Shown here: positions 1,415 to 62,595 of the stretch, one piece after another
How the letters are laid out: the number at the start of each line of letters is the position of its first letter
Position numbering within the stretch: position 1 is the first letter of the stretch
Assembly: GCA_021018995.1 (NCBI GenBank)
Contig: CM037593.1
Span: forward strand, 20,188,810 to 20,252,809
Reading direction: 5' to 3'
Source of the DNA: Chloranthus sessilifolius
Taxonomy: Eukaryota > Streptophyta > Magnoliopsida > Chloranthales > Chloranthaceae
Length of the DNA: 64,000 bases
Translations under genes and position numbers: made by a program
The notes under the pieces: generated by a model
What the model was told of the DNA's origin: nothing
The model's input: only the letters and a program-made list of their open reading frames with translations
Database searches by the model: none

Positions 1415-1575
1415 GTCAGCGCTTCACTACCGGGGTGTCAACGCTTTGCTACTGGGGTGCAAATGTCTCGCTATCCGAGGTACCAATGCTTTTCTCTCGG
1501 GGTGTCAGCGCTTATCTATCGGGATGTTATCGGTTCGATACCGGGGTGCCAGCGCCTCGCTATTGAGGTGTCAGT
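1415..1575. repeat. 22-bp repeat array, left part, in M element copy 1
   Basis: Six to seven degenerate units of 21-24 bases run in tandem, each with GGGGTGTCAGCGC then CTATCG-like ends. Units contain small dyads (AGCG...CGCT). The array is broken at 1575/1576 by the insertion and continues at 5784. Confidence 0.8.
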
Positions 1576-3194
1576 TGTCATAAGGGTGTAGCCCGACAAT
1601 GACTATCACACCCATACGATGCTTCGATGCCACGTGCAACGAGGCTAGCCTACCCAACCATCAGACTCTGATACCACCCGCTGAGAGGACGAGAAATCCC
1701 GTTCACGGTTGCCTTCTCTCGAAGCCAACCATTCATCGCATTGTGCCCCTTATGACACCCATGCTCACACCTCCGTGTCTCACTTGGTCTGCTCAAGCTT
1801 CACTTTCGCGTGTCCTGCACTAATTCTGCGCTTCGCAATAGTAGCATGTAGCTCTTCATGCTGTCCCATTTCAACATAATTCACCGACATACCGAGTCAA
1901 GCCCACCATCGTGTGCGTTCCTCATTACTAACACACGTTTGCATCTGACCATCTTGCTGGCGTGCTCTACCGAGTCCCACGCAGCCCTCAAGTGTCTCCC
2001 CCATTGTTGACCCATGTGCACTGCGACGCCGGCCCAGGGCCACATGGCAATCTCACCTTGGGTGTCATACAACATTGCCAAAACAACGTCTTAGGCTCAC
2101 CCTTTCAGGCTTAGGAGATATTTGCACACCATCCGACGACGCAAGGCCCCGTGTAGGTGAGAGGCATCTCATCTAACAACTCTCCCACATAGATGGTTCA
2201 AACACCATCTATGGACAAATAACTCGAAGGCCTCAAACATATTAGTTGTCATACCCCCATGGCACACGGACTGCTTCTGTGGCATACCATACCATGCCTC
2301 ATACCACTACACCCATGTCTCCCCGCATCATCTTCTCATGCGATCGTGTTGTCGTGATCATGTTGCGATCGCACCAACTAGCTCCAAGGCCCATATGCCT
2401 TCTTGCTGCTGGCCAACCAACTCTAAGGCCCCCAAGCCTTCCCGCTGCTACGCAGAGTATTTGTGACAGCCCGAATTTTCCCAACTTGAATTTTGAGATA
2501 TATATATTTTTTTTCTTTAACTTTACACCTAAACCAAATGGGAAAACCCAGACCGTCGGGTCATAGAACACGATTCGAATACAGAATGCTTGGTACATCT
2601 ACATACATGCAGAAATCAAAGCAGAAAATACATATGACATAATTAAATATCCAATATTACAATAACTAACAACGACCACCAGTGATATACCAACATCACC
2701 AAACAGTAGTGTACAATGAGTATGTAATAATACATTGTACCAAGCCACACTCACCAAACTCTACAAAGGAACATCATAGCACTCCTCAATTCCTCAATTT
2801 GCAAGTCCGGTGTCCAAATAGAAGCTATACCTGTGACGTATAGTCGAAGGGTGAGCTACATCCTAGCTCAGCAGAGGAAACTCAGCACAATTTTATATCC
2901 TATCATAACGAAACATAAATTCAATGTCATAATCAAACTTTTTTTTATTTAAAGTTGAAACTCATTCCAAAGGTACTTTTCTTATCAACAAAGACTGATT
3001 TCAAATACTAATTTTTTTTATCACACAAACTGATTTCAAAACTGATTTCTTTTTTCACACAAAACTGATTTAAAAGCTGATTTCCTTATTATACAAAACT
3101 GATTTTCTTTTCACATACAAAAGTAATTTCAAAATATTTATTTATCACATAAAATTGACTTCAAACCTGTGCCGACGACCCACATGGTACTTGT

Positions 3195-3310
3195 ACTCCG
3201 CCCATAGCGGTTCACGACAAGCATAATCCGTCTACAGCGGTCCACATACACATAATCCGCCCATAGCGGTTCATATAGACAATATCCCCCCATAGCGGCC
3301 CACTTTAATC
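3195..3310. repeat. Short tandem repeat with CATAGCGGTTCA units
   Basis: About four units of 30-35 bases carry the shared core CGCCCATAGCGGTTCA, varying to GTCTACAGCGGTCCA. The AGCGGTCCA core reappears in the 60-bp repeat just downstream, so the two tracts probably share an origin. Confidence 0.6.
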
Positions 3311-3369
3311 TCACGACTTATGATTTGATTCATGAAGTATAATCCGAAGAGTACATAAAATCCCGCGAA

Positions 3370-3790
3370 AGCGGTCTAAGGGCGTAGATGAATCTCGTCA
3401 TAGCGGTCCAAGAGTGTACCGAGTCACAACAAGGTCTAAAGGAGTACTTAAAATCTCATAAAAGCGGTCCAAGGACATACATAAGCACAACAAAGTCCAA
3501 AAATATACGTAAATCTCGTACAAATGGTCCAAGAGCGTACATAAACACAACAAAGTCCAAAGGAGTATGTAAGTCTCGTAAAAATGGTCCAAGGGCGTAC
3601 ATAAGCACAATAAAGTCCAAAAGAGTACGTAAAATCCCGCGAAAGTGGTCCAAGGGAGTACATGACTCACAACAGTGTCCAAAAGAGTACGTAAAATCCC
3701 GTAAAAACGGTCTAAGGGCTTACATAAATCCCGCCACAACAATCTAAGGGTGTACATAAATCCCGTCACAGCGGTCCAAGGGTGTGCCTT
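3370..3790. repeat. About 60-bp tandem repeat, roughly seven units
   Basis: Repeated GGTCCAAGGGCGTACATAA followed by CACAACAAAGTCCAAA and GAGTACGTAAATC recurs near 3465, 3525, 3585 and 3645, a period close to 60 bases. Open frames on both strands here merely read through the repeat and are not taken as genes. Confidence 0.78.
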
Positions 3791-4516
3791 CTCACAAATC
3801 TACAAGACTCAATGATTTCGAGTTCACATTCTAGTTCAGATTTCTAATTTACGGTCCAAAGCTCATATTTTTTGTTCAAGGGTTTTAAAACTCACCATTT
3901 AAAAATCAAGTTTAAAATCAAATACCATAGTAGAAATTTTAGGTTAAGTTCACAGTTCAGAATTCACCATTTTCGATTAAAGGATTTCAAATTTCTCTTT
4001 TACAAGGAGTTCAAGTTATAGTTCAAATCACTATCAAACTTACATCAAAATACATCAAGAAAACTTATTATTTTTCATCTGAATACATCAAAGAAACTTA
4101 TCATTTTTCATATAAATACCTCAAAGAAACTATGAATCAAAGTTAAACATGCAAGTTTGTGTTGAAGTTTCCCTATCTTAACCTCAAAGCAAGCAAGGCC
4201 TAATCGATGGCCTTCTGCCCTTAATCTATATCACAAGCGCATAATGATGTATCAAGGATTAACTCTAATCACTAATTACATAGATACATTTAAGTATTTT
4301 CTCAAAATCGAGGTTGAAATGGGCAATTTCATGCCAATATAGAATTTGACGCAACCTTCCTCCTAAATTTTGACCTTTAAAACTTTAGATTTATAAGTTG
4401 GTCAAAACACAAAAGTTATAGAGTTCGTTGTCCTCTTTCCAACGCTATAGAAATTGCGTCAATCGGAGTTCGGAGTAAAATATTATGGTCAAAATACCGA
4501 AATAGTGTCGGCAAGC

Positions 4517-4815
4517 ACATTCAAAATCGATTAATCGAAATTCTAAAGTCGATTAATCGACTCCAAAATCGATTAATCAACTCCAAAATCGATTAATAGA
4601 AATTCTAAAATCGATTAATCGACCCCAAAATCAATCAATCGATTTTATAAAAAAACAAGCTTTTTCAACCACTGGCAGTGCTCATTCGATTGATCGATTC
4701 TAAATCGATTAATCGAAACCAAAAATTGATTAATCAAAATTTAATTTGATCAATCGATTTCGGCTGCCGCTCCCATATTTTCTTTCTGTCAAAAATCGAT
4801 TAATCGATTTTGACA
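4517..4815. repeat. Palindrome array TCGATTAATCGA in solo LTR A
   Basis: At least five TCGATTAATCGA-type 12-bp palindromes follow each other at 20-22 base steps between 4530 and 4650. Variants with TCAATCGATT continue to 4815. Spacers are AAATTCTAA or CTCCAA. Confidence 0.85.
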
Positions 4816-5783
4816 GCAAAATAGCCATTTTCGGCTGCACATCTCTCTTTCAACCTTTTCTCCACTTCTAACTCATTTCCTTTAAATCTTTCACTCATAT
4901 CATTACTAAAAATTAACACAACTTTAAATCACAACTTAACATAAATTTTCTTACCTTTTATCCAACGATTTATTCACTGATCAGATCGTCTTCCTCGTTG
5001 CACAAAAAAGTTTCCCAAACCCACATTGATCTCTTACGAGCTCCACGATCACAACCAAGCCAACGTAATCGTAGGCAATCCTTCCTCACACGCCACACCC
5101 AAATCTCGCTACGATTTGTGGCTTAAAACACATGATCTCTTTGCGAGAAGAAAAAGGGTTTTCAAACTCCAATCGACTTCAAATCACGCCACACGACTCC
5201 TCAATGTCGAAATCGATGATATTTCTCTTCCTTACACAAGCTCATACATTATTTTCTACGGAATCTCGAGCTCGGCGCACACGGATCCGGTCATTCCTTC
5301 TCTTTCTTCTTCTTCCTCTCTCTAAATCTCAAAACTCCCAAAATAGTGCAAACCGGGTGTTAGCTTCCAAAGGAAGCTATTTGCTTTTCTTTAATTCAAT
5401 GGGATTAGTTCCCATACAAAACACATATGCCCCCTTTGGGTGTTAGTTGTTACCCATGTATTTAGCCTCTGTGTGAAACAGACATACTTAGTTAGGGTGC
5501 TATCTCATAACAAAATGATCTTTGATTAGGTGTGGGCCTACACAACCAAACCATCCGCTAATCGGACCCGGTGTTGAGCCAATACACCAAAGCTTGGTGC
5601 ATAAGAAACCATATAATGCTCAACACACAATCTAAATCGGTCTTTTTTCACTTAAGATCAAACCTGAAATAACCCACTTAATTAATTTCACGAAATCAGA
5701 CACGTGACCAGTCAGACACACACACCAAGGCACACTATTCAAAGTCAAAATTTTCAGGCTGTTACAGTATTGGCCCCGTCACA

Positions 5784-5960
5784 TAGCGCTTCGCTAATGG
5801 GGTGTCAGTGCCTCACTATCGAGGTGTCAACGCTTTTCTCTCTGGGTGCTAGCGCTTGGCTACCAGGATACCAACGCCTCTTTATCGAGGTATTAGTGCT
5901 TCTCTCCAAGGGTGTCAGTGTTTCACTATCGAGGTGTTAGCACTTCGCTACCGAGGGTAC
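5784..5960. repeat. 22-bp repeat array, right part, in M element copy 1
   Basis: AGCGCTTCGCTAATGGGGTG followed by several units with TATCGAGGTGTCAACGC-like sequence repeat about every 22-24 bases. This is the continuation of the array interrupted at 1575. Confidence 0.8.
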
Positions 5961-13062: not shown

Positions 13063-13935
13063 TAAAAGGGAAAATGCGCTCGGGTGTAGAGATATCTCTG
13101 CGCCTTTTGATATGGGTGTGACACGTAGCGTTTTTTTTGTGAAGTAATGTGTGGCATGAAGCACTTTATTAACTAGGGTTAAACTTTTAAAATATTTTAA
13201 GTCATATTCTCTTTCAACCGTCATTTTTGACTTTTTTAGAAGTCTCTTTCTTTTCTCTCTCTTCTCTATCTTTTTCCAAGAAATTGTTAGACTTACTTTT
13301 TCAACTATATTTTACTCAGAAAATGTGGGCGCCCGACAGTGAAGTACGAGCATGTCGGTAGTGAAGCGCCGACACCCCGTTAGAGAGGTGTCAACACCTC
13401 GATATTGAGGCGCTGACACCCAGTCGCTAGGGTACTGGCGCTTCATTATTTATTTATTTTCTTTTTATTGAAGCTCCGACACCTCGATATAGAGGTGCCG
13501 ACGCCCCTAAAATGATGTGTCAGCACCCTATTTTTTTTTTAGCGAAGTGCCGATACCTCGATATAGAGGTGCAGCCGTGGTACCAACACTTCGCTATTGA
13601 GGAGCCAGTGCCTCGCTATTGAGGTGCCGATGCCTTACTACCGGGGTGCCGGCGCTTTGATACCGAGATGCTAGCGCTTTACTATTGGGCGCTTACATTT
13701 TTTAAGTAAAATATACCTTAAAAAGTAAGTCTGACACATTCTTGAAAAAGAGAGAAGAGAGAGAAAATAAAAATACTTTTAAAAAGTCAAGAATAACGGT
13801 TGGAAGAGTATATAACTTTTAAAAATACTTTAAAAGTTTAATCATAGTTAGTAAAGTGGAACCCATGCCATCCACCACTTTACAAAAAGGTGTTACGTGT
13901 CGCGTTCATGTCAATAGGCACAGAGATATTTATAT
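13060..13935. mobile_element. M element copy 3, right end truncated
   Basis: The left end has GGGAAAATGCGCTCGGGTGT and the subterminal dyad TAGAGATATCTCTGCGCC. The conserved TTTTTTTGTGAAGTAATGTG follows. The centre (13325-13690) is a 22-bp array, then the inverted arm runs to CAATAGGCACAGAGATATT at about 13930. The final CGCCCGGGCGC-type end seen in copy 2 is missing. Confidence 0.68.
13325..13690. repeat. 22-bp repeat array in M copy 3
   Basis: Units with CACCTCGATATAGAGGTG-type dyads and GCCAGTGCCTCGCTATTGAG occur about every 22 bases. Homopolymer and ATTT tracts interrupt the array near 13445-13480 and 13530-13545. Confidence 0.78.
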
Positions 13936-36556: not shown

Positions 36557-36622
36557 TATAGTCGTCTTTTCTCTTTTATTTCATCAGTCTTATGACCCTT
36601 CCTTCTCATTCTTAAACAGACG

Positions 36623-39288: not shown

Positions 39289-39379
39289 CAGTGTATATTT
39301 TTAATAATGATAGATTGAATGTAAATGAGAAATTCAGAATCTATATTTTTTTACACTGTATTATAGTCTTTACTGATGT

Positions 39380-44060: not shown

Positions 44061-44794
44061 TAAATATAAGTCTACATTGATCTCAAAATGTTTAATTTAC
44101 ATCGTAAATTTCCCTTATTACATAGAAAATATTTAATTCTGGACTCAAAAGATTTCATGAAGTCGCCATTGCATCAAAAAGTTGTTTCATTTACTTCACA
44201 ATATTTCAATTACATTCAAATTTTTTCACTTATAATTAAAAAATAAGAAAAGTTAGGAAGAAGGAGGAAGAGCAGGTGGGGGGTGGGGCGGAGCGCCGGG
44301 TGGTCCCGTCTTAAGTTTCTTTTTCTTTTCTTCCTTCTTCTTTTTCTTTTCTTCCTTCCTCTTCTTCTTCTTTTCTTCCTTCGCCAAAATCTCCATTACT
44401 TCATCGTACTCGTCCCACAGGAACTGCAGAGGATCTGGTTCTGGTGGTGGTGGTGGGTCCTCCCCTACTGAGGATAGAACTTTATTGGGTTATAGAAGGT
44501 TTTTCTTCGTCAAATGGGACATTGGGAAAAATATGGGCTGCTAGGGATGATAGGTGGTTTGCTAAGGTCGAACTAAACCTGTATTTAAAGCTCCTAGATT
44601 GTGGAATACGAATCGTTGTATTAAATTTTCTCATTCTTCCAACCTAACTTGCCATAATGGTTTTACAAAAGGGTAGTTGGCAATAAATTGAACGTCGGCT
44701 GAGATAAATATAAAACCTCGTATGATTTATTATGGCATCGAGGGTAATAACTATAGGGAAATTATTTCAAATGATGGGTATTAATTATATTCAT

Positions 44795-45000
44795 AGAGAG
44801 TCGATATCGATTTGTTATAGATTCGTCATCTACAGTTCATATAGTCGATTACGACTACATATATAATCGTTATCGACTCTAAATGTAATCGAGAACGTTT
44901 TCCCATATGTAATCGGTAACGATTACATATGTAATCGATATCGATTATATATGTAGTCGTAATCGATTACATATGTAATCGTTACCGATTACATATGGGA
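44795..45000. repeat. Palindrome array near the Ulp1-like gene 5' end
   Basis: Units AGTCGATATCGATTTG, AATCGTTATCGACTCT, AATCGGTAACGATTAC and AGTCGTAATCGATTAC repeat at 22 bases. The sequence around 44900-45000 is itself an inverted repeat: CCCATATGTAATCGGTAACG and its complement, ending ACATATGGGAAAAC. Confidence 0.88.
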
Positions 45001-45272
45001 AAACCTAAAAAAAATATGTCAAAATATGCAACAAAGAGAGGAGAAATAAAAAATCTATAGCGATGGAAGCTAATTTTAATTCTAACTTACAGATTTGGTA
45101 GCTTGAAGGTTGTAGTTTTGAACGCGATCGTCCACGAAGCGTAAACGACTCTCCACCGACTTCGAACGAAAAAGTAAATTCAAAACAGTAAATGATTTGA
45201 AAAGAGGGCGGCTATTTATTACTGTGGGGGTAGTTTGGGTATTTCCTATAGGCGTGCCTCAGCTCGGCGCGC

Positions 45273-45356
45273 AGCTGGTTTGTCTGGGTAAAAGTGAAAC
45301 TATAGAGCTTCTGACGTAAAAGGCGTATCTGACAGGGCCGGTCAGGTAAATTTCCC
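45273..45356. repeat. Right terminal inverted repeat of the MULE (84 bp)
   Basis: The exact inverse of the left repeat with two differences. It starts AGCTGGTTTGTCTGGGTAAA and ends GGTCAGGTAAATTTCCC. Confidence 0.92.
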
Positions 45357-45774
45357 AAACCATAAACACTAATGATGTGACAACTGACAACAAGGCAGAA
45401 ATAGATTAATAAATCAATTTCCCAAGAAAAATTTACACGATCGACCCTTTGAAGCTCAACCGATGCCCGCCTTTATGAATTACCGAAAATACTCCCAAAG
45501 TAATAAATAATCGTAAAAAATTCAAATCATTAATTTCTTTTAATGTTTTACTTTTTTTACTTTTTACTTTTCGTTCGAAGTCGGTAAAAGGCAGTGTCAT
45601 TTCGAAGTCGGTGGCGCTCAATCGTTCAATCTTCAAGTACCAAATCTGTAAGTTAGAAATTAAATTTTATTTCATTACTGCAGAATTTTTTTTTCTTCTT
45701 TCGACAATCTATATTTTGATTTAATTTTTTTTGTTTTTCCTATATTAACGCAGCAATATCAACCCTTTAAACAA

Positions 45775-45900
45775 ACGGTATCGACTGTTTAGAAGGTTGA
45801 CAACGACTGTATATACAGTCCATACCGACTGATTAAAGAGTCGATACCGATTGTTTAAAGGGTCGATAGCGACTGTGTATACGGTCGACATCGTTCTCTT
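45775..45900. repeat. Palindrome array in intron 1 of the second Ulp1-like gene
   Basis: Units such as AGTCGATACCGATTGTTTAA, GGTCGATAGCGACTGTGTAT and GGTATCGACTGTTTAG occur at about 22 bases. Spacers are GTTTAAAG rather than the TATATA of the first element. This is the position corresponding to the first element's intron 1 clusters. Confidence 0.85.
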
Positions 45901-46854
45901 AGCCTGATTATAATATATAGTTCATTTAAACAATCTGTGTTAGTATGAGACTCACTATTTTCTTTTTTATTACAATTCATTTAAACAAGTTGTGAAGATG
46001 GTCGTACAATGGGCTATTGCCAACTGTTCTCCCACTGGCATTTGGAAGTTCTATGATGATGCTAGCCCGAGGAGAAAGGGGTTATAGAGAGCATCAGTTT
46101 TCGGTAAAATATTTCAAATGCCAAAGGATCTGAGTTTTTTTGAAGATGTCGTCGATGCGATGTTGAGTTTTTGGGTTGAAATGAATCACTTCATAATCAG
46201 AAAGAGTGATGTCTATCTCCGGAAGATGGACATTACATTAATACTGGGTCTTATCGTGATTGAACTCGAACAGTATACCCCCCTTTAAACCACCGGAAGA
46301 AGAAATCATTCGCTACAAATGTTTTCGTGGACTGCCTACCGAGAAAATTCTCCGGTCTCATATAGACTTTGGAATGAGGCGAGCGAAAAGGGACTACGAT
46401 TTTGTAAAGTTGTCTCTTCTATTTGTGTTGTGTATATTTCTTTTTCCCGGGTCTCATCATCAACTGGTAGAAGAGCACGTCGACCTCATCGATGACGTCG
46501 AGAACTTCAATCAAACTTCGTGGGGTCTCCACGTGTACCGTGACTTGATCGAGTATAATATGAAGGGTATGACGAGTAGAAAGGTTGCTAATAAGGATAA
46601 AGCCTTTAAGTTGTTTAACATTTATGGATGCATTTGTGTACTTTAATATTGAGCTTATGAGATGCTTTCAGAAATCTCACCTGAAAGAATGCCCCTGAAA
46701 AATCCTTTCTTACGATTATTGAAATGGGCGGAGAATGAGCAATCGAGGATGAAGGGCTACACTGTTGGGAAGATGTTGAACAGTAAGGTATGATGTCTAT
46801 TTAAATACTTCAAATCTCTAAAGCTATAGAATGTAAAGAGTACCAATGCCAATT

Positions 46855-46955
46855 GGAAAAGGGTACCGATTGCTTAAAGAGTCGATACCGACTGTTTAAA
46901 GAGTTGATATCGACTGTTTAGAGAGTCAATTCCGACTCTTTAAAGAGTTGATACC
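46855..46955. repeat. Palindrome array in the intron after the DUF1985 exon, second copy
   Basis: Units AGTCGATACCGACTGTTTAA, AGTTGATATCGACTGTTTAG and AGTCAATTCCGACTCTTTAA step at about 22 bases. This is the same intron that carries an array in the first element (42415-42615). Confidence 0.85.
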
Positions 46956-48299
46956 TTGCGCTTATATTCTATTTTCGATTTAGTATTATGATATTTTGGG
47001 GGTTTCTCTTTTTCTTTTTTTGTAGAAGGTTTGCGTTCCCCTCGAACCGATTTTCTTCGAGTTAGAGATACCAGTCGTAAGAGAATATTCGCGGGATCTA
47101 AAGGTTGTTGGGGAGAAGAGGAAAAAGGTTGATGAAGAGGTCGAGAAAGCTGTGAAAGTGGATGTTGAATCGAAGAAGAAAAAAATTACATTCCTATTAA
47201 AAATATTGACAAGGAAGAATTTGATGCCCAATCGACGTCGGACAAAGACTCATTCTCGGAAGAGGGCTTCGTCCAATTAGAGCGGCAGAGAATAAGGGAG
47301 GCCACGAAGGAGAACGCCAGTGCACCAACATCCTCTAATGAATCATTGTTGAGGATGATCGATGGTCTAGTGCTCGACAACTTGAAACTCATCCAGAGAG
47401 TGCGCCATTTGAGAGAATGACCGTTTCGCGAGAATAGAGCAAGAGAATGAGCTTCTCGCCACACTCCTTGGATGAGTGGCTCACTTCAAGGGATGTAGAG
47501 CTGCAGAGGATGAATCACCACAACAAGTTGATCAGAAAGGACCAAACGATTCTAAAAGAACTTCTTGAAACTTTTTTGGAGGGGACACCTATGGTATGTG
47601 TTGTAACGTAGTTTGTATAAGTGAATAAAATTTCAGTCAGCTTTCTAATAATGTTTCATTCGATATTTCAAGATGTTGCTATTTTGGAGTTGCTATCGAA
47701 GGTGCCTAACAAACCTTCGATATTTTATCCTTGGTCGATAAGGGACCACCTCCTCCCATGCATGCGGAGGTACCAGTTGGTGACGAACAACCTGAGTCTC
47801 AACCCGATAAGGGACCAACTGATGATGAGCTACCCTCTTCCCAATTCACGGGGGTGCCTGAGCAACAAATTGACACTCGCTTGAGACTTAGGAAACTCAC
47901 GAAACACACTGTCGTGAAACCTAGGACCGGGCGAAAGGCACCCTCGAAGGAAAAGCCTGAAGCGGAGAGGGCCATTGGGGAAGTTCAATAGACAGAGCAG
48001 GAGAAATATGTCGGCCCTTTGAAACAAGCCTATTTCTAAAGACTAGTAAGTTTATTTTTCCTATGATAGTTTGTTAGTACTTAATTTAATTTAGTTTTGA
48101 ATTTCAACATTGGCCGTTATTTATACAACACCTATGTAAGCACCGTCGGTGATTATACGCTCCTACTGCAGTCTTTCAGATGTTTGGCAGGCACGACAAT
48201 ATTATAACCTTACAACTCATATAATGCTTGAGTGATGTTCTGTCATATTTAGTTTAGGATTGGTCCTGCATGTCTTTGCTACTATAAGGTAAGTACCGA

Positions 48300-48545
48300 A
48301 TAGTCAATCGTCAACGACTCTGTACATAGTCGAATGACTGTCTATAAAGTCATGGATGATTGTCTATTCACTCGTGGGCAACTCTTTAAACAGCCATCAA
48401 CAACTCTATAGGGAGTTGTTAGCGACTGTATAGGGAGTCGTTAGCGATTGTCTAAGTAGTCGAAGACGATTCGTTATACAGTCGCTACCGACTCTTTTGA
48501 GAGTCAGCAACGACTGTATATAGAATCGTCAACGACTCTTTAAAT
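48300..48545. repeat. Palindrome array in the intron before the MGVYLRLLR exon
   Basis: Units such as CGTCAACGACTCTG, AGTCGTTAGCGATTGTCTA, AGTCGCTACCGACTCTTTTG and AATCGTCAACGACTC recur at 21-23 bases. This is the same intron as the first element's 40655-40868 array. Confidence 0.85.
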
Positions 48546-49651
48546 TGTTTATTAGTTTAACGTTGTATTTGTATTGCTTTCAGATAATGGGAGTCTACCT
48601 AAGACTCCTGAGAGTCATTGATGACACTCGTCATCCTGACCGAAAAGAGAAATGTTTCCTTATGCGCCCCACCGTGTTGACCCACATGGTCCTAGACTTG
48701 AGAGATTTCAAAAAATTTATAATTTATGAAAAACTCTACGAAGAATCATTCGCGATACAAATCGAATGGTGGTCTGCTTATAAGGGAGAAGCGAACTAAG
48801 GCAGAAAGGTGCTATAAAACTTCTTCAACCGGTTGCGAGATCTGTGGGCTCACAAATGTAGGTCGGTACATTACGATCGCTACTAATAACTTTTAAAATT
48901 TTTTAATAAGTAGCCTCTAACATTATATTCTTCTTTCCAGATATTTGTCCCTATTCATTCTCATCAACCATTACATTGGGCACTTGTGATCGTGAAGGTT
49001 GTCGAACGATCGATAATGGTCGTCGACCCTATTTTTGATAGGTCCTCAAAGAAAAAATATCAAGAGCAATTGACAACATTGGTAAGTATTATATAATACG
49101 AATTCGTCCAAACTTACAAATTTTCATTGTTTGTTTAGCTTATCTGACATTCCTCTATTTTAAAACAGACACAATACCTACCCGTTCTTTTATATTTGTA
49201 CGGAGACTCCACTGCACTGAACGTTAAGTCTTATCCTTGATCATGTACTGACTGCAGAATCAAGTTCGTTCCCCTACAGACCAATTCGTGGGACTATGGG
49301 GTGCTTGTGCAGAAGTATGTGGAGTACTTCACGGAGGGAAAGAAATTCGACTTTGCGTAAAAAGATATGAGTAGGTTCATGGGAGAAATTGATCATGCCC
49401 TAACTACATACACCAGCGATGGAGGCGGATCAGACGAGGACCTTGGTAAAGATGTACCAGTGGATTCGTCCTCATAGTTTTGAGCATATGTACTCTTTAT
49501 TTGTAAACTCTTGTAAATTCAGGTTAAATTATAAATTCAAACTCGTATGTAAATTTGTAATATAAATTAAACTATAAATTTGAATATATGTTAATTTGTT
49601 ACTTTGTATTTATAAATTCAAACTCAAATTTGAGTATATGTTAATATGATA

Positions 49652-51114
49652 TGTGCCGAAATATGACATTATTTTGCACCCTAATACCAACATTTGGTTG
49701 TCCGATGAAGACAATCTAACGGTTGTTGTGTAGTTTTAATAGTTTCAGGTGTTCTTGACTGTTGGATCTTGCAGATGCATAAAGGAGCATAATTAAAGAC
49801 TACATGGGGGCATTAAACCATTAAGCCAACGAAAGCATCGAAATTCATGAAAAGAACCGATTGAGCCAGCCATTGCTAAGAGAATTAAAAATGTCACAGG
49901 TCTAACTCAATCGGTTGAGTTCACACCTGTTCTGCCGCCCAAAATCTGAATTTAAAATCAATCGATTGAATTTCAAAAATCAATTGATTGAGTTTGTGAT
50001 AACTATTTTCCCTCTCAAATTTGAATTTAAATTCAATCGATTGATTTCCTAAAATCAATCGATTGACTTTAAATTCAAATTTGAGCCCGCCAATTTCAGA
50101 TTTTGAATTCAATCGATTGAATTTTGGAATTGAATCGATTGACCTATAAATGAAAGTTTTCAACCAGCGACCTATATAAACAAAACATTGTTATGGTTCG
50201 GGGAGACTTCTTCTTGGCCGGAATTTCTTAGTATTTTTTCAAAATTTCTCCATTATTTTTAGGGCTTAATTTTAGTTGATGATAAATAGTTTATAATTAG
50301 GAATCTAAGCTTTGTAAGGTTCTTGATCTTTTTCTAAAAGATTCAAACACTTGATAAATAAAAGAATGTTTTGATGGTTTCATACTCATGTGTTGCGTAC
50401 GGATCAAGGATGAGCGGCTAAACCTCACGATCGAGGAGGACGCAAACCCTAGATGAGTAATTAACACATTTATAGTTCAATCATTCTTTGCTATATTTAT
50501 TGAATCGTACGACTATAGTTTGTGCATACTGATATATCCTCGAATACTCATTTATAGCCGTTGATCTTATAAATCAATGGCAATAAAAGAGTTATTCCAC
50601 CTAGTTTGATCTTGTAGATCAATCTAGGATGTTGTACGATTGATTTTACTTGTTGTGGTTATGTGCTTGGGATATGTTATACCTTTCACATGATTCATAT
50701 CTTGATTGAATGCGTCATAATGTTAGGACAGTGTATGCCGACTATCGTAATCTCATTTTTATCGATTTATTTTTGCTTGTAGTAAAATGAGGGTTAATAA
50801 ATTATCATTGAAATGGTTGGATTGTGAGTAGAAAAATTACATATCTAGGGTAGCAAAATCCTTGATTATTTATCATAAGTTGTTTTATTTGTCTTGTTCT
50901 TCCTTGCGTAAGTTTGTTTAGATCTCTTTGATTGTGTTTGTATAGTTGCTAATCTTCATCGTAACAAAAATCTCACCTTTGGCACTCCTTTAGGTTCATC
51001 TAACGCTTTTAGAATTAACTAAATTTCAAGCTTCCCTGGGCGTTCGACATCCGTTGTACTCACCCTTGTTCTTCGAACTTGTGCACTTGCAAGGGTATAT
51101 TTCTAAAACCATCA
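49652..51114 (+). mobile_element. 5' LTR of an Athila-like retrotransposon
   Basis: The right end (...AAAACCATCA) lies six bases before a tRNA-Asp-type primer site, which fixes it well. The left end at TGTGCCGAAATATGACATT is chosen as the nearest TG after the MULE gene and is uncertain. The length of about 1.46 kb suits Athila. TCAATCGATTGA-type palindromes fill 49955-50150. Confidence 0.6.
49955..50150. repeat. Palindrome array TCAATCGATTGA in the LTR
   Basis: Six units of AATCAATCGATTGA or ATTCAATCGATTGA occur as three pairs. The members of each pair lie about 22 bases apart. Confidence 0.88.
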
Positions 51115-51138: not shown

Positions 51139-51309
51139 AGCGACGAAATTTTGTTGATTATAGGAGTGTTTAGTTTTGTTTAGTCTTTTTTTTTTTTTTT
51201 TTTTTTAAATAAATAAAAATAATAATAGATATAAATATTTATGCTTGTGTGATTGTTGAAATTTTTTTTCATCATGTCGGATAGTGGGTTTTTGTTCTCT
51301 ATTTTGCCA

Positions 51310-51590
51310 GTCAATCGATTAAATGGTGAGATTCAATCGATTGACTGAGGAGCAAAAACATGCCTACTCTATGGCAAATCCATCGATTGATCTATCTCAA
51401 TCGATCGATAGAGTCTGAACTTTTACCCTTCCAACTTTTTTTATTTGTTCTATTTGGACAGTGTATACTGTCTCGATCGATCAATTGTTCAGAATCAATC
51501 GATTGATTGAGGAGCAAAGAATTGTGTTAAATTTGGCTCACTTTTTCACATCAATCGATTGATTTTCAAAAATCAATCGATCGATTTTTA
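51310..51590. repeat. Palindrome cluster in the retrotransposon leader
   Basis: About eight palindromes such as GTCAATCGATTAA, CAATCGATTGAC, ATCAATCGATTGAT and AATCAATCGATCGATTT are spread between primer site and gag. A homologous leader with the same kind of palindromes is at 60545-60905. Confidence 0.85.
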
Positions 51591-52844
51591 ACAGTGATTG
51601 TTCTTCAGTTCATTCTCATTTAAAAAATAATAATAATAATAAAAATAAAAAAATAAAATAGAAAATTTAAAATAAAAAATTTTGGGTTCACTACATCCTT
51701 GTCTCGGTTTATAGGTGTATGAGCTTTACCCAATCTCATCACCTCGATATACAACCTTTGAATCGTGAGATCGAAAGATCTTGTAAAATAAATCGTAGAA
51801 ACCGAATACTTCAGTGTGATAACATTGAGATCATGGCTGAGCAAAGCCGAGGAGGAAGGAATGAAAACAACACTAATGAAGGGGAAAATGGAAATCACAA
51901 TGAGGGGCCAGTTGGTCTAAGAACGTTAGAGGAGTAAAATGATCCTAGTCCTTACGAGGATCAGGATAGTATCACTCATGCTTGCATTCCGGGGAATCAT
52001 TCGGATTTAAATTGGCCATGATCCAAATGTTATTGATTTTCAACGGATTAAGTAATGAAAATTCGCACGCACACCTAACCGATTTTATCGGGGTTTACAA
52101 GATGTTTAGGTTACACAATGTGACTGATGAGATAGCAAAGTTGAGACTTTTTCCTTTCTCTTTGAGAGATAAGGTAAAATTTTGGTTTCTTTCACTAGAA
52201 CCAAGATCCATTAGGAATTGGAATGAGTTACAAAGAGAGTTTTTAAAAAAATACTTTCCCATCAGTAAAACCATTGATCTGCGTCAGAAAATTCTGACAT
52301 TTGCTCAGCAGTCTGCTGAATTATTTCACGAGAGTTGGGAGCGATTTAAGAAATTAATTCGGAGTTGCCCACATCACCAAATCCCAAGATGGCAACAGGT
52401 CCAGAGTTTCTATACTGGACTGATACCAGAAGAAAGACGCATGGTGGATGCATCGTGTGGAGGATCATACATCGTAAAGGAAGAGGGAGAAATTTGGGCT
52501 CTTTTCGAAAGATTGAGCCAGAATTCAATGCAAGGAGAGGCATTGGGTCGTGCTAATCTCGATATGTAAGTCAAAACCCATGTGCTGACGGAAGGCGGGT
52601 TGTATGAAGTCAACAGTACCTCTGACTTAGCAATCAAAGTTAATGTGTTGTCAAGACAAATGAATATCTTGTTGGCAGCGACCAGCAAGCTCAAAATCCC
52701 ATCACTCCTATTGTCTGTTCGATTCGTGAACATCAGGGTCACACGACTAATGAGTGTCCAACCACTCAGATAATCTTTCCTGATGATCCTAATCCTCATG
52801 AGTAGGTGAATGTGACCCAATCATATCAAAGGCAGGATAGAAAT

Positions 52845-55015
52845 TATGACAGTCCGAATTTCGACACCCCGAAACCCGTGCCATCAGCACAACCCTTAGG
52901 GCCGTGCCCTGATTCTGTACGAAGCATTGGTATATATATAAGTCAAAAACTACAAGTAAGGCACATGCATCTACTCTAAACAAGTTTTCATGCATTTAAA
53001 ATAACAGAAACTCTAGAGACAATTTTTGTCCCATGCCAATTCATGGGCATAAGAACTGACCCAAATCGTTGGTGATAACTATTCACCCTCGACGTTTGTC
53101 AAAAGAATAAAAATATTTAATTACATTCAAAATAAAGAGGCTTGACATACTAAGTCGTACCTAAATACTCTCAACTCACTCTCAAAGTACGCAATGGGTC
53201 TCCTAGAAAAATTCCTCAGGAGGAGGCTCTAACTCTTCTGTGGGCACGTAATTCGAGTCCCCCGGATCAACGTCTTCAGAAGTCTCTGCTACCGCTAGTC
53301 CTGGACCTGCGATGTATAGTCTAAAGGGTGAGCTACATCCTAGCTTAATAGAGAAACACAGTGAACATATAAATTAAGCTCTCACATGTATGTTAAAACA
53401 ATTTAAAGATATGATTTATTTGATAAAACTGCTGAAAGACAATAGAATAATTGGAAATAAAATGACAGATACAACTGTTACTTTATATGACTTTGTTTAT
53501 TCTTGTCTTACTGGTATAGTAATAGATTCGGCCTAATCACTTAAATCTTAACTTAAATAGTCCCCGAGCAATATAGCATCGAGCCCCGATGGAATACCCA
53601 CCATCGTCGTCTAAATAGACACTTGTTATGTGTAAAAATTCAATACTACCCAAGCCCCTTTCTCTTAGGCGGTGGGGTCTATTCTCAATTCAACATCCCT
53701 GGGATGTGCTATTGTGTACAATTTGGCCGCCGTACCGGTCACGGATATCCTGCCGAGTCAGTCGTGGGTATCCCGCCATGTCGGTGGGGTATTCTAATTA
53801 AACCTTAAATAACAGAATATCGAATGTGCTCTACATATAGTTATTCACCGTGATTGTGCTAATTTTATTACGTTAGGCCTTATCGTTCTTCTTTTGTTCC
53901 ACCATTTGGTTTCTTCTGCATCCCTGGGACGCTACTGGTTTAATGCATCATTCAGATGCCCATTGTTACAATTCTACATCCCCTGGGGACTTCATGATTT
54001 CTATTTAAAATTCACTCATGCACACACACATGTTGGAAACATATTTATATGACTGTTCTCTTGAGATACTCTATATGATTGAAATACTCTACATACATGG
54101 TTTTGACAAATTAAAGTACATGTTCCAAGATATTTCCTACCTCAAGTAAATCCAACGCGCTTCTTTCTCATAGAGGTTTACGCGTAACAACTCACGTCAT
54201 ACCTACATCGCATGTGACACGAAATTACTCAGGAAGGTCTCTAGAACCCTTGGAAACACAGCTCTCATAATTTACACCAAAAGAAATGAGAGAACTGAGT
54301 AATTCCTCGCGCGAGCGGTCATTTAGCCTTGCTCGGGCGAGCACTTGACCTCGCTCGAGCGGTTATAAATTCTCGCTTGAGCGGTCATTATTCATCGCTC
54401 GAGCGGTTATAATATAAGGTATCTAAAGCTCTAAGCGATGTCTCGCTCGAGCGAGCTTCTCCTTCACTGTGGGTCTCACTCGAGCGAGTCCAAAATACGA
54501 ATATGCTCAGAATATTCTCTCTGTCCTCGCTTGAGCGAGCCACGAAAAGATGTATGTTCTCTATATGTTCGAGAACTATCATCTTCTTCATGAGGGATTT
54601 AATAGTGTCAAGGATCATTCGCCCACTAGTTTAAACTTTACTTAAAACATACGTAAACATCTAAATTCATACCTTACTCGATAGATCTCCTATAGTTTGA
54701 TCCAAGCTTCGTCTAATTGTGAAGATTTTCAAGGTTTTCTATTGCTTACACCAACGAAACTCTCCTCCTCTTTAGCAACCCTTCTCTTCTCTCTCTCTAT
54801 TTTACATTCTCTCTAACTATGCTAATTTAGGTTACGTAGGGGAGACTCCTCCCCACTTTCACTTATATAGTAAAAGTTAGAAAGTTTCATATATACACAC
54901 AGTGTGTATATGTAGTTTTTGGTTTCCCTGTGAATCACAAATACATGTGCATGATATGTGGTACACGTGCATGGTAAGTGATATTCACGGTTCCCAAAAA
55001 TCTGGGGTTATGATA
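52845..55015 (+). mobile_element. Solo LTR B (about 2.2 kb) inserted in gag
   Basis: It begins TATGACAGTCCGAATTTCG, close to the start of solo LTR A (TGTGACAGCCCGAATTTTC), and shares the block CCTGCGATGTATAGTC...GTGAGCTACATCCTAGCT (53306) with LTR A. It ends around GGGGTTATG(ATA). GATAGAAAT occurs on both sides (52836-52844 and 55012-55020), so the exact end and duplication length (5 to 9 bp) are ambiguous. Removing it rejoins the gag frame. The terminal TG appears mutated to TA. Confidence 0.7.
54305..54545. repeat. Palindrome array TCGCTCGAGCGA in solo LTR B
   Basis: At least seven palindromes of the type CTCGCTCGAGCGGTTA recur. Three successive units near 54355-54410 are exactly 22 bases apart. 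Others are TCACTCGAGCGAG and CTCGCTTGAGCGAGC. The array is markedly GC-rich compared with its surroundings. Confidence 0.9.
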
Positions 55016-59449: not shown

Positions 59450-60540
59450 ACCCAAATGTCTATTGACTCCATTGATCTCGTTGATTCCAAGGGTTAAGAA
59501 TCAAATGGTCGAGCTGTCAAGAACTAAACTCAGCGATTACAGGGAATTTTCTTAGTTTTTTCCTTAGCTTTTCATTTTTTAGCTTTAACTTTTGAGCTTT
59601 TATTTTTCTAGCAATTTTTAGGCTCTTTCAGTTTTCCCTTTTATTTTTGAAGCATTATTCTTTCATTCCCTAGTTCCAGAACCTTAGAATAGTTTGAAAT
59701 CTGCATTTGAAGAAGGATTGTACTGATTGGATTAAAGCTTTTGTGGATCTTGTGAAGCCCTTTTACAGTATTACGGTATTTTAATGTCAATTTCAATTTC
59801 TGTCTTTATTTTATTGTTTACTTCGAACATGAGTGGCTAAATCTCTTTGAGGATTGGGATCTAATGAATCCCATCTGAGGCTTCATTTATTTATCATAGA
59901 TCTGTAGTTGGAATTTAATGTTTGATGCTTATTGATTTTATCGCTTAAGTGTTCTTGCCGATCTTTGTAAAAACTAATCACCAATCTAAGATATGGGATT
60001 TAGTTATGCTCTTCCCGTGATCTCAGATATGTGATTTGGAGTTTACATTGAGTTCTTTAATGTTAATATTTGCGGCATTTACTTATCGTCATTAGAAACA
60101 AATATCTTTTACAGTGAATGTTTTATCCATTTCTTTTGCGGGATTTATTTATTGTAATTCGTGATCTCTTTCACAGTAAGTGTTTTACCTCATTTCTTTT
60201 GCGGTTTTGGAAGAGCACTAAACTCGTTGTTGTTGAGAGGCTTTAATGTCCCATCTTCCATAAATTACCAATTGATTTTAGTGTTTACGAGTTTCGCATT
60301 GTTTGAATTTCGACCAATAAGATGTACGATTATAAATGGAAAGCCGAGGATGGGAGGATTTAGCATCCCGAACCTCACCTTTTTCTATTGCTTTTAATTT
60401 CATTTAACTATTTAATTGTTAGTTCCCATCACTCTCTTTGAAATCAATAAAACTAGTTTAGATATTGTGCTAAATCTGTGGATATTCTCCTAATTATTTT
60501 CTATTTCTATCTTTAAATTTTCTCCCTAGGATTATGGATT
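59450..60540. other. Post-pol region, LTR-like in part
   Basis: CAAGAACTAAACTCAGCGAT...ACAGGGAATT (about 59515-59550) recalls the AAGAC..AAA..AGCGCT..GGGAGG tail found after pol in many plant Ty3 elements. GAGTGGCTAAATCTC...GAGGATTGGGATCTAATGAA (59831) resembles the 5' LTR stretch at 50411 (GAGCGGCTAAACCTC), suggesting a diverged LTR. No primer site follows. No gene. Confidence 0.45.
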
Positions 60541-60544
60541 TTGT

Positions 60545-60905
60545 TCACAGTTTTGTCAATCAATTGATTGATTTGTGAAATTCACTTGATCGACTGACAC
60601 ACAAATTCAAGGGTACTATTTTGGGCACTGTGACAAGTCAATCGATCGATTTGTGAAAATCAATCTATTGACTGAGAAGCAGAAACTGGCCAGCTCTGTG
60701 GCAAATCGATCAATTGAGTTATTTAAACCAATCGATTGATTCTGAACTATGACCAGTGCAGCTTGTTTTTAATTAATTAATTTATTTTTTTAAAATTATT
60801 TTGTTTGGGCAAACTGTGAAAATTATGCTTTCTGTTGTGTTTCAATCGATCAATTTTCAAAAATCAATCGATCGATTTTCACAAATCAATCGATCGATTT
60901 TGAAC
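60545..60905. repeat. Palindrome cluster in a second leader-like segment
   Basis: About nine palindromes such as GTCAATCAATTGATTGATT, GTCAATCGATCGATTTG and AAATCAATCGATCGATTTTC. The block CTGAGAAGCAGAAACTGGCC...GGCAAATCGATC (60681) matches CTGAGGAGCAAAAACATGCC...GGCAAATCCATCGATTG (51343), so this is a copy of the Athila leader. Confidence 0.85.
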
Positions 60906-60949
60906 TGTGGCTGCTTCTCAGTTTGTTTTCATATAAACATTAAAAAAAA

Positions 60950-61460
60950 AAAAAGAGTTAAGATTAGGTTTTTTTTTAGGATTTTAAAGATTTTTTAGGA
61001 TTTGTAGGATTTGTAGGTTTCTTTTAAATTTTTAAAATTTAAAATTTTGAATTTAGAAATTTTGAATTTTGAATTTTTGGATATTTTTTATTTTTAGGAA
61101 TTTTTGAATTTAAAATTTTTTGAATTTTTAGGATTTTTGAAATTTTGAAAATTTGAAGTTTTAGGATTTTTTTTAGGACTTGTAGGATTTTTAGGAATTC
61201 TAGTTTAGGATTTGTAGAATTTTTTTTTTTTTTGTAAGATTTGTAGGATTGGTAGGATTTTATATTTTTTCCCTTCTTTTCTTGTGTAGATTTGTAGGAT
61301 TTTGTAGGTTTCTTTTAGTTTAATTGTTTAGTAATTTTCTAATTCTAGTTTATTGCCTTTTGTAAGATTTTTTTAGGATTTGTAGGTTTCTTAAATTTTA
61401 TTGCCTTTTATTTTATTTGTATTAGTAATATTTTAATTATAGTTTACTTTTTTTTTTTTT
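60950..61460. repeat. Low-complexity TTTGTAGGATTT tract
   Basis: Degenerate repetition of TTTTTAGGATTTGTAGGATT and TTGAATTTTGAATTTTTGGA over about 500 bases, strongly strand-biased for T and G. No coding sequence. Confidence 0.8.
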
Positions 61461-61598
61461 CTAAATTTAGAGATTGAGGTTTGAGTCTACCAAAGCTTCG
61501 AAGGAGACACTCGTGAGAGGCCAAGGTATGCACCTTTATTTTCAGATTTAGTTAAAAAAATATAATTATATTTTTATTTTCTAGTTTGTCTTTGAGAT

Positions 61599-62500
61599 AT
61601 GGAGTTTCCCACAATTTCGATAACCCCATCTTTTTATGGGTTTAATTATGAGACTCCATACCAAAATTGGGATGCATATGGGGAGAATGATCCTAATTGG
61701 TGGGAACCAAATCAAGGTTGTGAATTAAATCAGCTTTATATACAAAATTTTTCAGACCAACCTCAGTTTAACCCACAATACTCACAATCCCTATGGAGTT
61801 CTGATTTCGAAGACCGGATGTTAACTATGTTAGAAGAACTCCAATTCCAGTCTGACCATCTTGCGAGACTTGAATATCAAGTAGGGCAGTTGGTCGCTGT
61901 CATTGCCAGGGAGGATGATACCTTGCCTAGCCAACCAATAAATATCTCGTAAGACCTGATTTGGAAAGAAGAAACTACCCCCACCCATGAGCATGAGGTT
62001 GAGACTGTGACCTTTAGGAGTGGACTTAAGGTAGATTACAAGGAAGATGTTGTTAGCCCATATAACATTGAAACAGTGGAAGATTGCCAACCAATTTGTG
62101 ATACTCCTCTAATACCAAAATAATAATTGCAAGATGAAGACACAATTTCTTATTTTACATTGATTGAGCAGTCAAGCATTACATATGAGGCACTTTGTGG
62201 GCCCAAAGATCCATTTCTACAATATTTTGACAAACCCTCAAGTCGATTGGTTGTAAACAATGATGTATTTGATACTCCTAAATTGTAAACATACATTGAA
62301 TCCAAATATGTCATGGTTTATAGGGTGAATGAGTTGGTTGAAAGTCCACCCACAAAAAGCCTCAAGACCCTAATTAATAGAGAAGGCAATCAATTCATGC
62401 CAGGTGAATGGCCCTTTCTTATGCCTATTGTAGTTTGAGGGGGTCCGGGTGAAGACCGAAAACTTAGCGCTTACTGGGAGGCAACCGAGTTGATTTGCCT
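61599..62500 (+). pseudogene. Gag-like ORF of a second, pol-less Athila-like derivative
   Basis: The frame from MEFPTISITPSFYGFNYE (61599) to 61952 resembles the Asn/Gln/Trp-rich tail of Athila gag and contains LEYQVGQLVAVIAREDDTLPSQP, comparable to LEDQIEQLANQMSRREEGRLPDQP in the first element. It breaks at TAA 61950-61952; further fragments with stops run to about 62440. At 62440-62480 the typical tail GTGAAGACCGAAAACTTAGC...TACTGGGAGGCAACC appears directly. Leader, gag-like ORF and tail without pol suggest an internally deleted, non-autonomous relative. Confidence 0.55.
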
Positions 62501-62555
62501 TTAATTGTAAAAAAAAAAAAAAACAACGGGTCATGTGTGTGTCTAGTGTGTTTTG

Positions 62556-62595
62556 GATTAATCGATTGATTCTTCTAAATCAATCGATTGATGTA
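62556..62595. repeat. Pair of TAATCGATTGATT palindromes
   Basis: TTAATCGATTGATTC and AAATCAATCGATTGATG lie about 22 bases apart, the same motif and spacing as in the LTR and leaders. Confidence 0.8.

What the first reader, a model, noticed from the sequence alone, without database searches (positions are those of the whole stretch)
1415..62595. Arrays of short palindromes at a roughly 22-bp step in five unrelated transposon families
Kaonashi MULEs (TCG-N4-CGA), solo LTR A (TCGATTAATCGA), solo LTR B (TCGCTCGAGCGA), the Athila-like element (TCAATCGATTGA) and the M foldback elements (AGCGCTTCGCT / CACCTC...GAGGTG) all carry non-coding arrays of 10-14-bp dyads spaced 20-24 bases, most often 22. 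Spacing and symmetry are shared, but sequence is not, so common descent is an unlikely explanation. Possible readings, all inference: arrays of dimeric-protein sites on one helix face (two turns), hairpins that promote local copying, or a host or element feature tied to 21-22-nt small RNAs.
Basis: partly seen in the sequence, partly recalled or inferred. Interest (0 to 1): 0.92.

Follow-up and report, generated by a model that had tools for sequence, protein, structure and literature searches.

The report
22-bp site arrays in plant transposons
Several mobile DNA elements in this plant sequence carry rows of short two-fold symmetric sites every 22 bases that look like docking sites for paired DNA-binding proteins, and in one element type they probably serve a self-made anti-silencing protein of a kind already known from Arabidopsis.

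Summary
The arrays are real: each of 21 stretches tested beats its 200 shuffles, and in 20 the best lag is 22 or 44. But "five unrelated families, one phenomenon" does not hold. MULE, Athila-like element, LTR A and LTR B have genuine dyads; the M dyad is of a strength that half of random 22-bp tiles give; LTR A steps mostly by 19-22. MULE, LTR A and Athila-like also share CGATT/AATCG half-sites.

In the two MULEs, arrays sit in introns and flanks of a DUF1985 gene (with a Ulp1/C48 domain in element 2). DUF1985 is a domain of VANC anti-silencing proteins, whose motifs lie in tandem repeats in the same places. Half-sites vary independently within a dyad (element 1: odds ratio 0.86, p=1), which speaks against hairpins; yet both shift together between the two elements (p=0.0003 and 0.002), as expected if an element-encoded dimer drives them. 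Best read as a VANC/KIU-like target array with a new geometry: inverted half-sites on a 22-bp lattice, in an element with terminal inverted repeats. The LTR arrays resemble Sirevirus "RM boxes". The common pitch is most simply two helical turns between dimers; that step is inference.

The parts
35874..45356 (+). MULE element 1, 98-bp terminal inverted repeats 35874-35971 / 45259-45356 (93%), flanking 9-bp direct repeats AAATCATAA / AAACCATAA (8 of 9)
36596..39288 (+). MULE transposase region (SWIM zinc finger; weak DBD_Tnp_Mut match below cut-off), spread over several open frames
39717..43514 (-). DUF1985 gene of element 1 in several exons; DUF1985 E 3.6e-7 at 42835-43173 (30.7 bits, curated cut-off 35.1)
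36280..36560 (.). 22-bp array upstream of transposase
39360..39640 (.). 22-bp array between the two genes of element 1
40630..40870 (.). 22-bp array in an intron of the DUF1985 gene
41520..41775 (.). 22-bp array in an intron of the DUF1985 gene; none seen in the matching intron of element 2
42420..42625 (.). 22-bp array in an intron of the DUF1985 gene
43570..44070 (.). three short 22-bp arrays 5' of the first recognised exon (43570-43660, 43755-43870, 43960-44070)
44780..45005 (.). 22-bp array near the right end of element 1
46088..49477 (+). element 2 DUF1985-C48 gene (DUF1985 46260-46646, E 8.3e-4, 19.8 bits against cut-off 35.1; Peptidase_C48 48914-49096, E 7.6e-7, above cut-off); ends of element 2 not determined
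45760..45900 (.). 22-bp array upstream of the element 2 gene
46855..46965 (.). 22-bp array, element 2 intron (same intron as 42420-42625 in element 1)
48300..48550 (.). 22-bp array, element 2 intron (same intron as 40630-40870 in element 1)
49900..50150 (.). Athila-like 5' LTR: one single and three pairs of TCAATCGATTGA-type dyads, pairs 22 apart, just upstream of TATA-like boxes at 50145 and 50173
51300..51600 (.). Athila-like leader, downstream of the PBS-like sequence at 51121: four dyad pairs, three at 22 and one at 18
60540..60910 (.). non-coding region downstream of the integrase frames: three dyad pairs and one triplet at 22
62550..62595 (.). dyad pair at 22
4518..4810 (.). LTR A dyads TCGATTAATCGA, steps mostly 19-22
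54302..54540 (.). LTR B dyads CTCGCTCGAGCG, four steps of 22 then irregular
1413..1580 (+). M array 1: 22-bp tandem repeat, dyad not supported; no inverted partner of it found in 900-2000
5780..5955 (+). M array 2, one arm of a fold-back element (partner 6570-6638)
13580..13690 (+). M array 3, one arm of a fold-back element (partner 13272-13420)

Best explanation
The finding bundles three things. (1) MULE arrays: target arrays of the DUF1985(-Ulp1) protein that the MULEs encode, a VANC/KIU-like anti-silencing protein. It would bind as a dimer to ARTCG-N4-CGAYT; 89 such sites lie in 22-bp chains in introns and flanks, on one face of the helix, so the protein coats the non-coding DNA and keeps its own element free of silencing marks. 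Shown: arrays, positions, gene domains, independence of half-sites within a dyad, concerted half-site shift between the two elements. Inferred: binding, dimerisation, demethylation. (2) Athila-like, LTR A and LTR B dyads: non-coding sites for a dimeric DNA-binding factor, working like the palindromic RM boxes of Sirevirus LTRs. Shown: dyads, spacing, and for the Athila-like LTR a place just upstream of TATA-like boxes. Inferred: factor and effect. (3) M: an ordinary 22-bp tandem repeat, in two of three places in the arms of fold-back elements. The common pitch in (1) and (2) is most simply two turns of DNA, the closest same-face spacing for 12-14-bp dimer sites (inferred).
For: DUF1985 in both elements, C48 in element 2. 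[quoted passage not shown] A profile of 30 of 93 DUF1985 relatives (28 Ficus, 1 Cannabis, 1 Acer) matches the solved VANC21 chain 9lnj (E 4.5e-17) and SENP1 (E 2.8e-7). Arrays in non-coding DNA: 1 of 63 exact core motifs lies in the exon-like frames I listed. No within-dyad association (element 1 table 32/11/17/5, p=1; element 2 1/2/5/9, p=1; pooled odds ratio 1.6, p=0.35) but element 1 v 2 shift at both half-sites: R A/G 46/22 v 3/14, p=2.6e-4; Y T/C 50/18 v 6/12, p=2.3e-3. Core kept, linkers diverged. LTR precedent: Sirevirus RM boxes, Tnd-1 RM = ACAATCGATTGT (PMC2829016, passages). Outside plants, patterns that allowed a range of spacings hit exactly 22: a TCAATCGATTGA pair between two divergent TetR-type regulator genes (dimeric repressors: recalled) in Acidobacteriota, 2 homologous loci, the only matches in the bacterial and archaeal collection, and a 22-bp tandem repeat with a CGCTCGAGCG dyad in one viral contig.
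Against: VANC21 motifs are arrayed in one orientation; here half-sites are inverted. KIU-bearing MULEs are described as non-TIR; element 1 has 98-bp TIRs. The window's DUF1985 exons alone do not reach VANC21 in the PDB, both DUF1985 matches in the window are below Pfam's cut-off (30.7 and 19.8 bits, cut-off 35.1), and no C48 match was found in the two element 1 frames tested. Element 2 contributes only 18 units, and units of one array are not independent: neighbours are measurably more alike than shuffled ones, so the p-values are optimistic. Some offsets come near significance for covariation (main dyad offset 9: 89 of 2000 shuffles; half-period centre offsets 2 and 4: 37 and 85 of 2000), uncorrected for 22 tests. 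Athila linkers are more alike than composition predicts (0.58 v 0.35), so part of the constant spacing there may be inherited. No binding, methylation or small-RNA data were available.
Confidence: 0.62

Rival explanations
1. Hairpins or cruciforms: the dyads are kept because one strand or the RNA folds (recombination, local copying, small-RNA trigger).
For: All true dyads could fold; palindrome clusters in maize Sireviruses attract small RNAs (PMC10760457, passages); a few offsets come near significance for covariation.
Against: The varying core pair is independent within each element; compensated against one-sided changes 1:22, 1:7, 1:13 in Athila-like, LTR A, LTR B; MULE core mismatches 35 G.T against 24 A.C, not tested for significance.
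Confidence: 0.07
2. One host factor with half-site CGATT/AATCG serves MULE, LTR A and Athila-like elements, and another serves LTR B; the arrays are host enhancer sites exploited by transposons.
For: Three families share the half-site; about 1% of random 12-bp palindromes contain it, 3% of those with a CG; upstream of TATA-like boxes in the Athila-like LTR.
Against: Spacing of the half-sites differs in the three families (MULE 4/8, LTR A 0/12, Athila overlapping), the similarity was noticed after the fact, and the half-site moved in MULE element 2 within the same host.
Confidence: 0.15
3. Arrays are ordinary minisatellites made by slippage, with the 22-bp unit a coincidence.
For: Fits M; tandem duplication must have founded the other arrays, and its trace is still measurable in MULE linkers (0.53 against 0.47 shuffled, 0 of 500).
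Against: Core conserved and linker diverged; 22 in 12 of 13 close Athila-like gaps although they are scattered pairs, not one array.
Confidence: 0.13
4. One mobile satellite spread between the families.
For: LTR A, MULE and Athila-like share a short core.
Against: M and LTR B show no similarity to any other family; contexts differ (introns, LTR, leader).
Confidence: 0.03

Closest known systems
VANC21/VANC6 target motifs in VANDAL MULEs, and KIU (VANC with Ulp1 domain) elements (Arabidopsis)
   Same: DUF1985 protein encoded by a MULE; short motifs at high density in non-coding DNA, in introns of the DUF1985 gene and upstream of the transposase; motif differs between related elements.
   Different: Here half-sites are inverted (two-fold symmetric) on a fixed 22-bp lattice rather than in one orientation; element 1 has 98-bp terminal inverted repeats, VANDALs are described as non-TIR; binding and demethylation untested.
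Sirevirus palindromic repeated motifs (RM boxes) in LTRs
   Same: Many palindromic boxes in the LTR upstream of a TATA box; the Tnd-1 box ACAATCGATTGT differs from TCAATCGATTGA only in its two end bases.
   Different: The Athila-like element has an RVT_1 match (Ty3/Gypsy-type: recalled) rather than copia-type reverse transcriptase; dyads also in the leader and further 3'; fixed 22-bp pairs; the usual CGG-CCG core is absent (it is also absent in Tnd-1). The passages I read give no box spacing.
Bacterial paired operators and plasmid iterons (analogy)
   Same: Dimer sites repeated at about two helical turns; an exact TCAATCGATTGA pair at 22 lies between two TetR-type genes, and a viral contig has a 22-bp repeat with a CGCTCGAGCG dyad. 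Iteron spacing is recalled.
   Different: No relationship by descent is claimed.

Membership tests
VANC/KIU anti-silencing system (VANDAL-type MULE) | MULE transposase in the same element | tested here: met
   SWIM E 1.6e-9, above cut-off but not specific to MULEs; DBD_Tnp_Mut only E 0.0083, below cut-off; 9-bp flanking repeats
VANC/KIU anti-silencing system (VANDAL-type MULE) | DUF1985 protein | tested here: met
   E 3.6e-7 and 8.3e-4, both below Pfam's own cut-off (30.7 and 19.8 bits against 35.1); the two genes 68% alike; tblastn of a Ficus DUF1985 protein E 8.6e-9
VANC/KIU anti-silencing system (VANDAL-type MULE) | Ulp1/C48 domain (KIU subtype) | tested here: met
   Element 2: E 7.6e-7, above cut-off; element 1 only by 68% DNA similarity to that region, two of its frames gave no C48 match
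VANC/KIU anti-silencing system (VANDAL-type MULE) | Motif arrays in introns of the DUF1985 gene and upstream of the transposase | tested here: met
VANC/KIU anti-silencing system (VANDAL-type MULE) | Motifs in the same orientation | tested here: not met
   Half-sites inverted, two-fold symmetric
VANC/KIU anti-silencing system (VANDAL-type MULE) | No terminal inverted repeats | tested here: not met
   98-bp TIRs, 93%
VANC/KIU anti-silencing system (VANDAL-type MULE) | Sequence-specific binding and loss of DNA methylation | not testable with these tools
   no wet data
Sirevirus RM boxes | Palindromic boxes upstream of TATA in the LTR | tested here: met
   Athila-like element only: dyads 49907-50142, TATA-like boxes 50145 and 50173, among five TATAWA matches in 49601-51120; not shown for LTR A or B
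Sirevirus RM boxes | Ty1/copia Sirevirus element | tested here: not met
   Athila-like element: RVT_1, Retrotrans_gag, integrase matches; LTR A and B carry no tested coding region with a match
Hairpin-forming arrays | Compensatory changes between arms | tested here: not met

The most novel reading that the evidence does not exclude
Retrotransposons in this genome have evolved the same half-site (CGATT/AATCG) at the same 22-bp pitch as the MULEs and so borrow the MULE-encoded anti-silencing protein: a shared two-turn lattice used by unrelated transposons to escape silencing. There is a precedent for an unrelated element being hit by a VANC (AT9TSD1 by VANC6). Against: half-site spacing differs between the three families, LTR A steps by 19-22, and LTR B does not share the half-site.
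Probability: 0.1. Interest if true: 0.82.

Novelty: new variant of a known kind. Interest (0 to 1): 0.5.

Why it matters
If right, the MULE arrays give a readable record of a protein and its DNA target changing together: the half-site is mostly AATCG in one element and mostly AGTCG in its neighbour, on both sides of the dyad. That makes the DNA specificity of DUF1985-Ulp1 proteins directly testable, and gives a geometry (inverted half-sites, 22-bp lattice) for how a short motif can mark a whole element. The question why unrelated elements use the same pitch would become a question about dimer packing on DNA rather than about shared ancestry.

Tried and rejected
Hairpin or cruciform selection: not supported for the MULE, Athila-like, LTR A and LTR B dyads. 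M dyads: two of five pairs are slightly above column expectation (11 v 8.2, 13 v 10.6; 5 compensated against 26 one-sided), one never pairs; I do not count this as support. Recent slippage as the whole cause of MULE unit similarity: I first compared neighbours with random pairs over all arrays (core 0.81 v 0.78, linker 0.53 v 0.45); a control shuffling unit order within each element shows that neighbours are measurably more alike (linker 0 of 500, core 11 of 500), so duplication left a trace but does not explain the kept core. CpG richness of the arrays (observed/expected 2.55 v 0.91) is not used as evidence because the motif itself contains CG. A de novo search for perfect 12-nt dyads gave 11, 6, 19 and 20 dyads in four parts of the window against simulated means of 4.2, 5.7, 4.5 and 5.2, but few pairs at 22 (1, 0, 0, 2), because MULE centres are mostly not self-complementary; I used motif-based counts instead. 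Host species not identified: the only protein hit to the joined query at 1e-5 was Ficus carica at 32% identity over 25% of the query; a second search gave 93 proteins, 91 named Ficus carica, one Cannabis, one Acer, from 7,999 scored candidates. Pattern scans of viral contigs: none, one contig (L003) whose match is a 22-bp tandem repeat.

Full report
WHAT WAS CLAIMED. Five unrelated transposon families in one plant window carry arrays of short dyads at a step of about 22 bp, with shared spacing but no shared sequence.

IS IT THERE? Yes, with corrections. I compared lag identity with 200 dinucleotide shuffles in each of 21 array stretches chosen after seeing the sequence; every one exceeded all its shuffles at its best lag, which is 22 or 44 in 20 and 42 in LTR A; for 60540-60910 the margin is thin, 0.38 against 0.37. 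An unselected scan of 150-bp windows finds lag-22 signal over 50% identity in the M, LTR B and MULE arrays and lag 20 in LTR A; other windows with a best lag of 18-26 are position 14126 (lag 20), an AT microsatellite and a CT-rich tract; the Athila-like dyads, being scattered, do not reach 50%. In the MULE region TCGN4CGA occurs 63 times against a simulated mean of 5.9 (maximum 11 in 100), and 37 of 47 gaps up to 70 bp are exactly 22. The Athila-like dyads stand in scattered pairs: in the automatic scan 13 of 20 distances up to 40 bp in the whole window are 22, two of them outside the element; in the 26 dyads I picked, 12 of 13 gaps up to 40 bp are 22, one is 18; one of the 12 depends on the choice between two overlapping dyads (60556 or 60560). 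LTR B has four gaps of 22 and then 48, 33, 51; LTR A mixes 19-22 with longer gaps. M is a 22-bp tandem repeat, but its supposed dyad is of a strength found in 49% of random 22-bp tiles and its conservation is not concentrated on the dyad. So four of five families have real dyads, and three of those hold to 22, LTR B only for its first four steps.

IS THE SEQUENCE UNSHARED? Not quite. Local alignments of LTR A with the array of MULE element 1 and with the Athila-like LTR score z=5.0 and 4.9, and MULE element 1 with Athila 3.8; for MULE element 2 the values are 2.6 and 1.4; M and LTR B match nothing (at most 1.4) (60 shuffles each). The common piece is the half-site CGATT/AATCG, in three different arrangements (gaps 4/8, 0/12, overlapping). 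About 1% of random 12-bp palindromes of this composition contain it, 3% of those with a CG. This was noticed after the fact.

WHAT THE MULES ARE. Element 1 runs from 35874 to 45356, with 98-bp terminal inverted repeats (93%) and 9-bp flanking repeats matching at 8 of 9. It has a transposase region with a SWIM domain and, on the other strand, a gene with DUF1985 (E 3.6e-7, below Pfam's cut-off). A second, 68% similar gene on the + strand (46088-49477) has a weak DUF1985 match (E 8.3e-4, also below cut-off) and a Peptidase_C48 (Ulp1) match above the cut-off; matching stretches are. By eye, donor and acceptor sites of the introns correspond between the two genes. Two homologous introns hold arrays in both elements (42420-42625 with 46855-46965; 40630-40870 with 48300-48550); one holds an array in element 1 only (41520-41775). 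Arrays also precede the transposase and the DUF1985 genes. Only 1 of 63 exact core motifs lies in the exon-like frames that I listed.

HOW THE MULE ARRAYS BEHAVE. From 95 located units I kept the 89 that stand in 22-bp chains. The motif is ANNNARTCGNTANCGAYTNNNT. The core is far better conserved than the linker (neighbours 0.81 and 0.53; random pairs 0.78 and 0.45). Neighbours are somewhat more alike than with unit order shuffled inside each element (linker 0.53 v 0.47, 0 of 500; core 0.806 v 0.785, 11 of 500): tandem duplication has left a trace, yet what is common to all units is the core. Within a dyad the left purine and the right pyrimidine are independent (element 1: 32/11/17/5, odds ratio 0.86, p=1, 65 of 71 units; element 2: 1/2/5/9, p=1, 17 of 18 units; pooled odds ratio 1.6, p=0.35). 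Between elements both shift: A/G 46/22 v 3/14 (p=2.6e-4) and T/C 50/18 v 6/12 (p=2.3e-3). A folding constraint predicts the reverse, covariation inside each dyad. A dimer that reads each half-site separately, and whose preference has changed between elements, predicts what is seen. Caveats: units in one array share history, so the p-values are optimistic; a few offsets come near significance for covariation (main dyad offset 9: 89 of 2000 shuffles; half-period centre offsets 2 and 4: 37 and 85 of 2000), uncorrected for 22 tests.

THE KNOWN COUNTERPART. In Arabidopsis VANDAL MULEs, VANC21 binds YAGTATTAY in vivo and in vitro; VANC proteins carry DUF1985 and DUF287; the motifs lie in tandem repeats in introns of VANC and VANB and upstream of VANA; VANC6 uses other motifs (PMC5735166, passages read; also PMC10398659, passages). 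VANC genes with a Ulp1 domain are called KIU, and a review states that they too act through motifs in non-coding regions (PMC13317346, passages, citing Sasaki et al. 2022, which was not held). A profile of 30 of the 93 DUF1985 proteins found matches the solved VANC21 chain 9lnj at E 4.5e-17 and SENP1 at 2.8e-7; the window's own exons alone do not reach VANC21, so that link is by way of the DUF1985 family. Differences: VANC21 motifs run in one orientation, here half-sites are inverted; KIU MULEs are described as non-TIR, element 1 has TIRs. So it works like a VANC/KIU system, but two described features are not met and I do not file it as a VANDAL.

THE LTR ARRAYS. The Athila-like element has gag, RVT_1 and integrase matches, a PBS-like sequence at 51121 (recognised from recall), and dyads directly upstream of TATA-like boxes at 50145 and 50173, two of the sites among five TATAWA matches in 49601-51120, again in the leader, and further 3'. 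Bousios et al. 2010 describe palindromic repeated motifs in Sirevirus LTRs upstream of TATA; the Tnd-1 motif is ACAATCGATTGT (PMC2829016, passages). The Athila-like element is not a Sirevirus (RVT_1, not copia-type), so this is resemblance in design. One-sided changes far outnumber compensated ones (22:1 Athila-like, 7:1 LTR A, 13:1 LTR B).

WHY 22? Two helical turns is the closest same-face spacing for 12-14-bp dimer sites; this is inference. Two independent cases came up by chance. The only two matches of TCAATCGATTGA-N8..12-TCAATCGATTGA in the bacterial and archaeal genome collection are homologous Acidobacteriota loci (one case) where the pair, exactly 22 apart, lies between two divergent TetR-type genes. 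The only match of TCGCTCGAGCG-N8..14-TCGCTCGAGCG in viral contigs is a 22-bp tandem repeat of 2.7 copies. For the Athila-like element, linkers are more alike than composition predicts (0.58 v 0.35), so inheritance explains part of the constancy.

NOT IN PRINT?

VERDICT. Observation partly confirmed; dimer-site reading supported, hairpin reading not; MULE part a new variant of a known anti-silencing design; LTR part close to known promoter boxes; M ordinary. The cross-family pitch stays open until a plant genome is scanned.

Noticed in passing
window 18441-18515 and 18998-19044: Two matches to plastid or group II intron families (Plastid-ycf3, Intron_gpII): probably plastid DNA inserted in the nuclear genome.
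   Followed up: no
window 49241-49360: Element 2 C48 region reads QTNSWDYGV where I recall a D-C-G catalytic motif in Ulp1 proteases; the copy may be inactive.
   Followed up: no
L001 3649-3682; L002 5233-5266: Acidobacteriota (Geothrix rubra and a MAG): two TCAATCGATTGA dyads exactly 22 bp apart between divergent TetR-type genes, a likely paired operator.
   Followed up: partly
L003 12792-12851: A viral contig carries a 22-bp tandem repeat (2.7 copies, identical) with a CGCTCGAGCG dyad, close to the LTR B dyad in sequence and pitch; iteron-like.
   Followed up: partly
P0001-P0091: Ficus carica holds a large family of DUF1985 and DUF1985-C48 proteins, one also with a SWIM domain (P0067) and one with MULE transposase domains (P0074).
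   Followed up: partly
window 41520-41775 v 47420-47660: The same intron of the DUF1985 gene has an array in element 1 and none seen in element 2: gain or loss of a whole array.
   Followed up: no
window 3391-3727: A 60-bp tandem array (5.5 copies) outside the 22-bp arrays.
   Followed up: no
window 36280-36560 and elsewhere in the MULEs: The MULE half-site ARTCG begins like the VANC6 motif AGTTGTCC and holds A-G-T as does VANC21's YAGTATTAY; too short to weigh.
   Followed up: no
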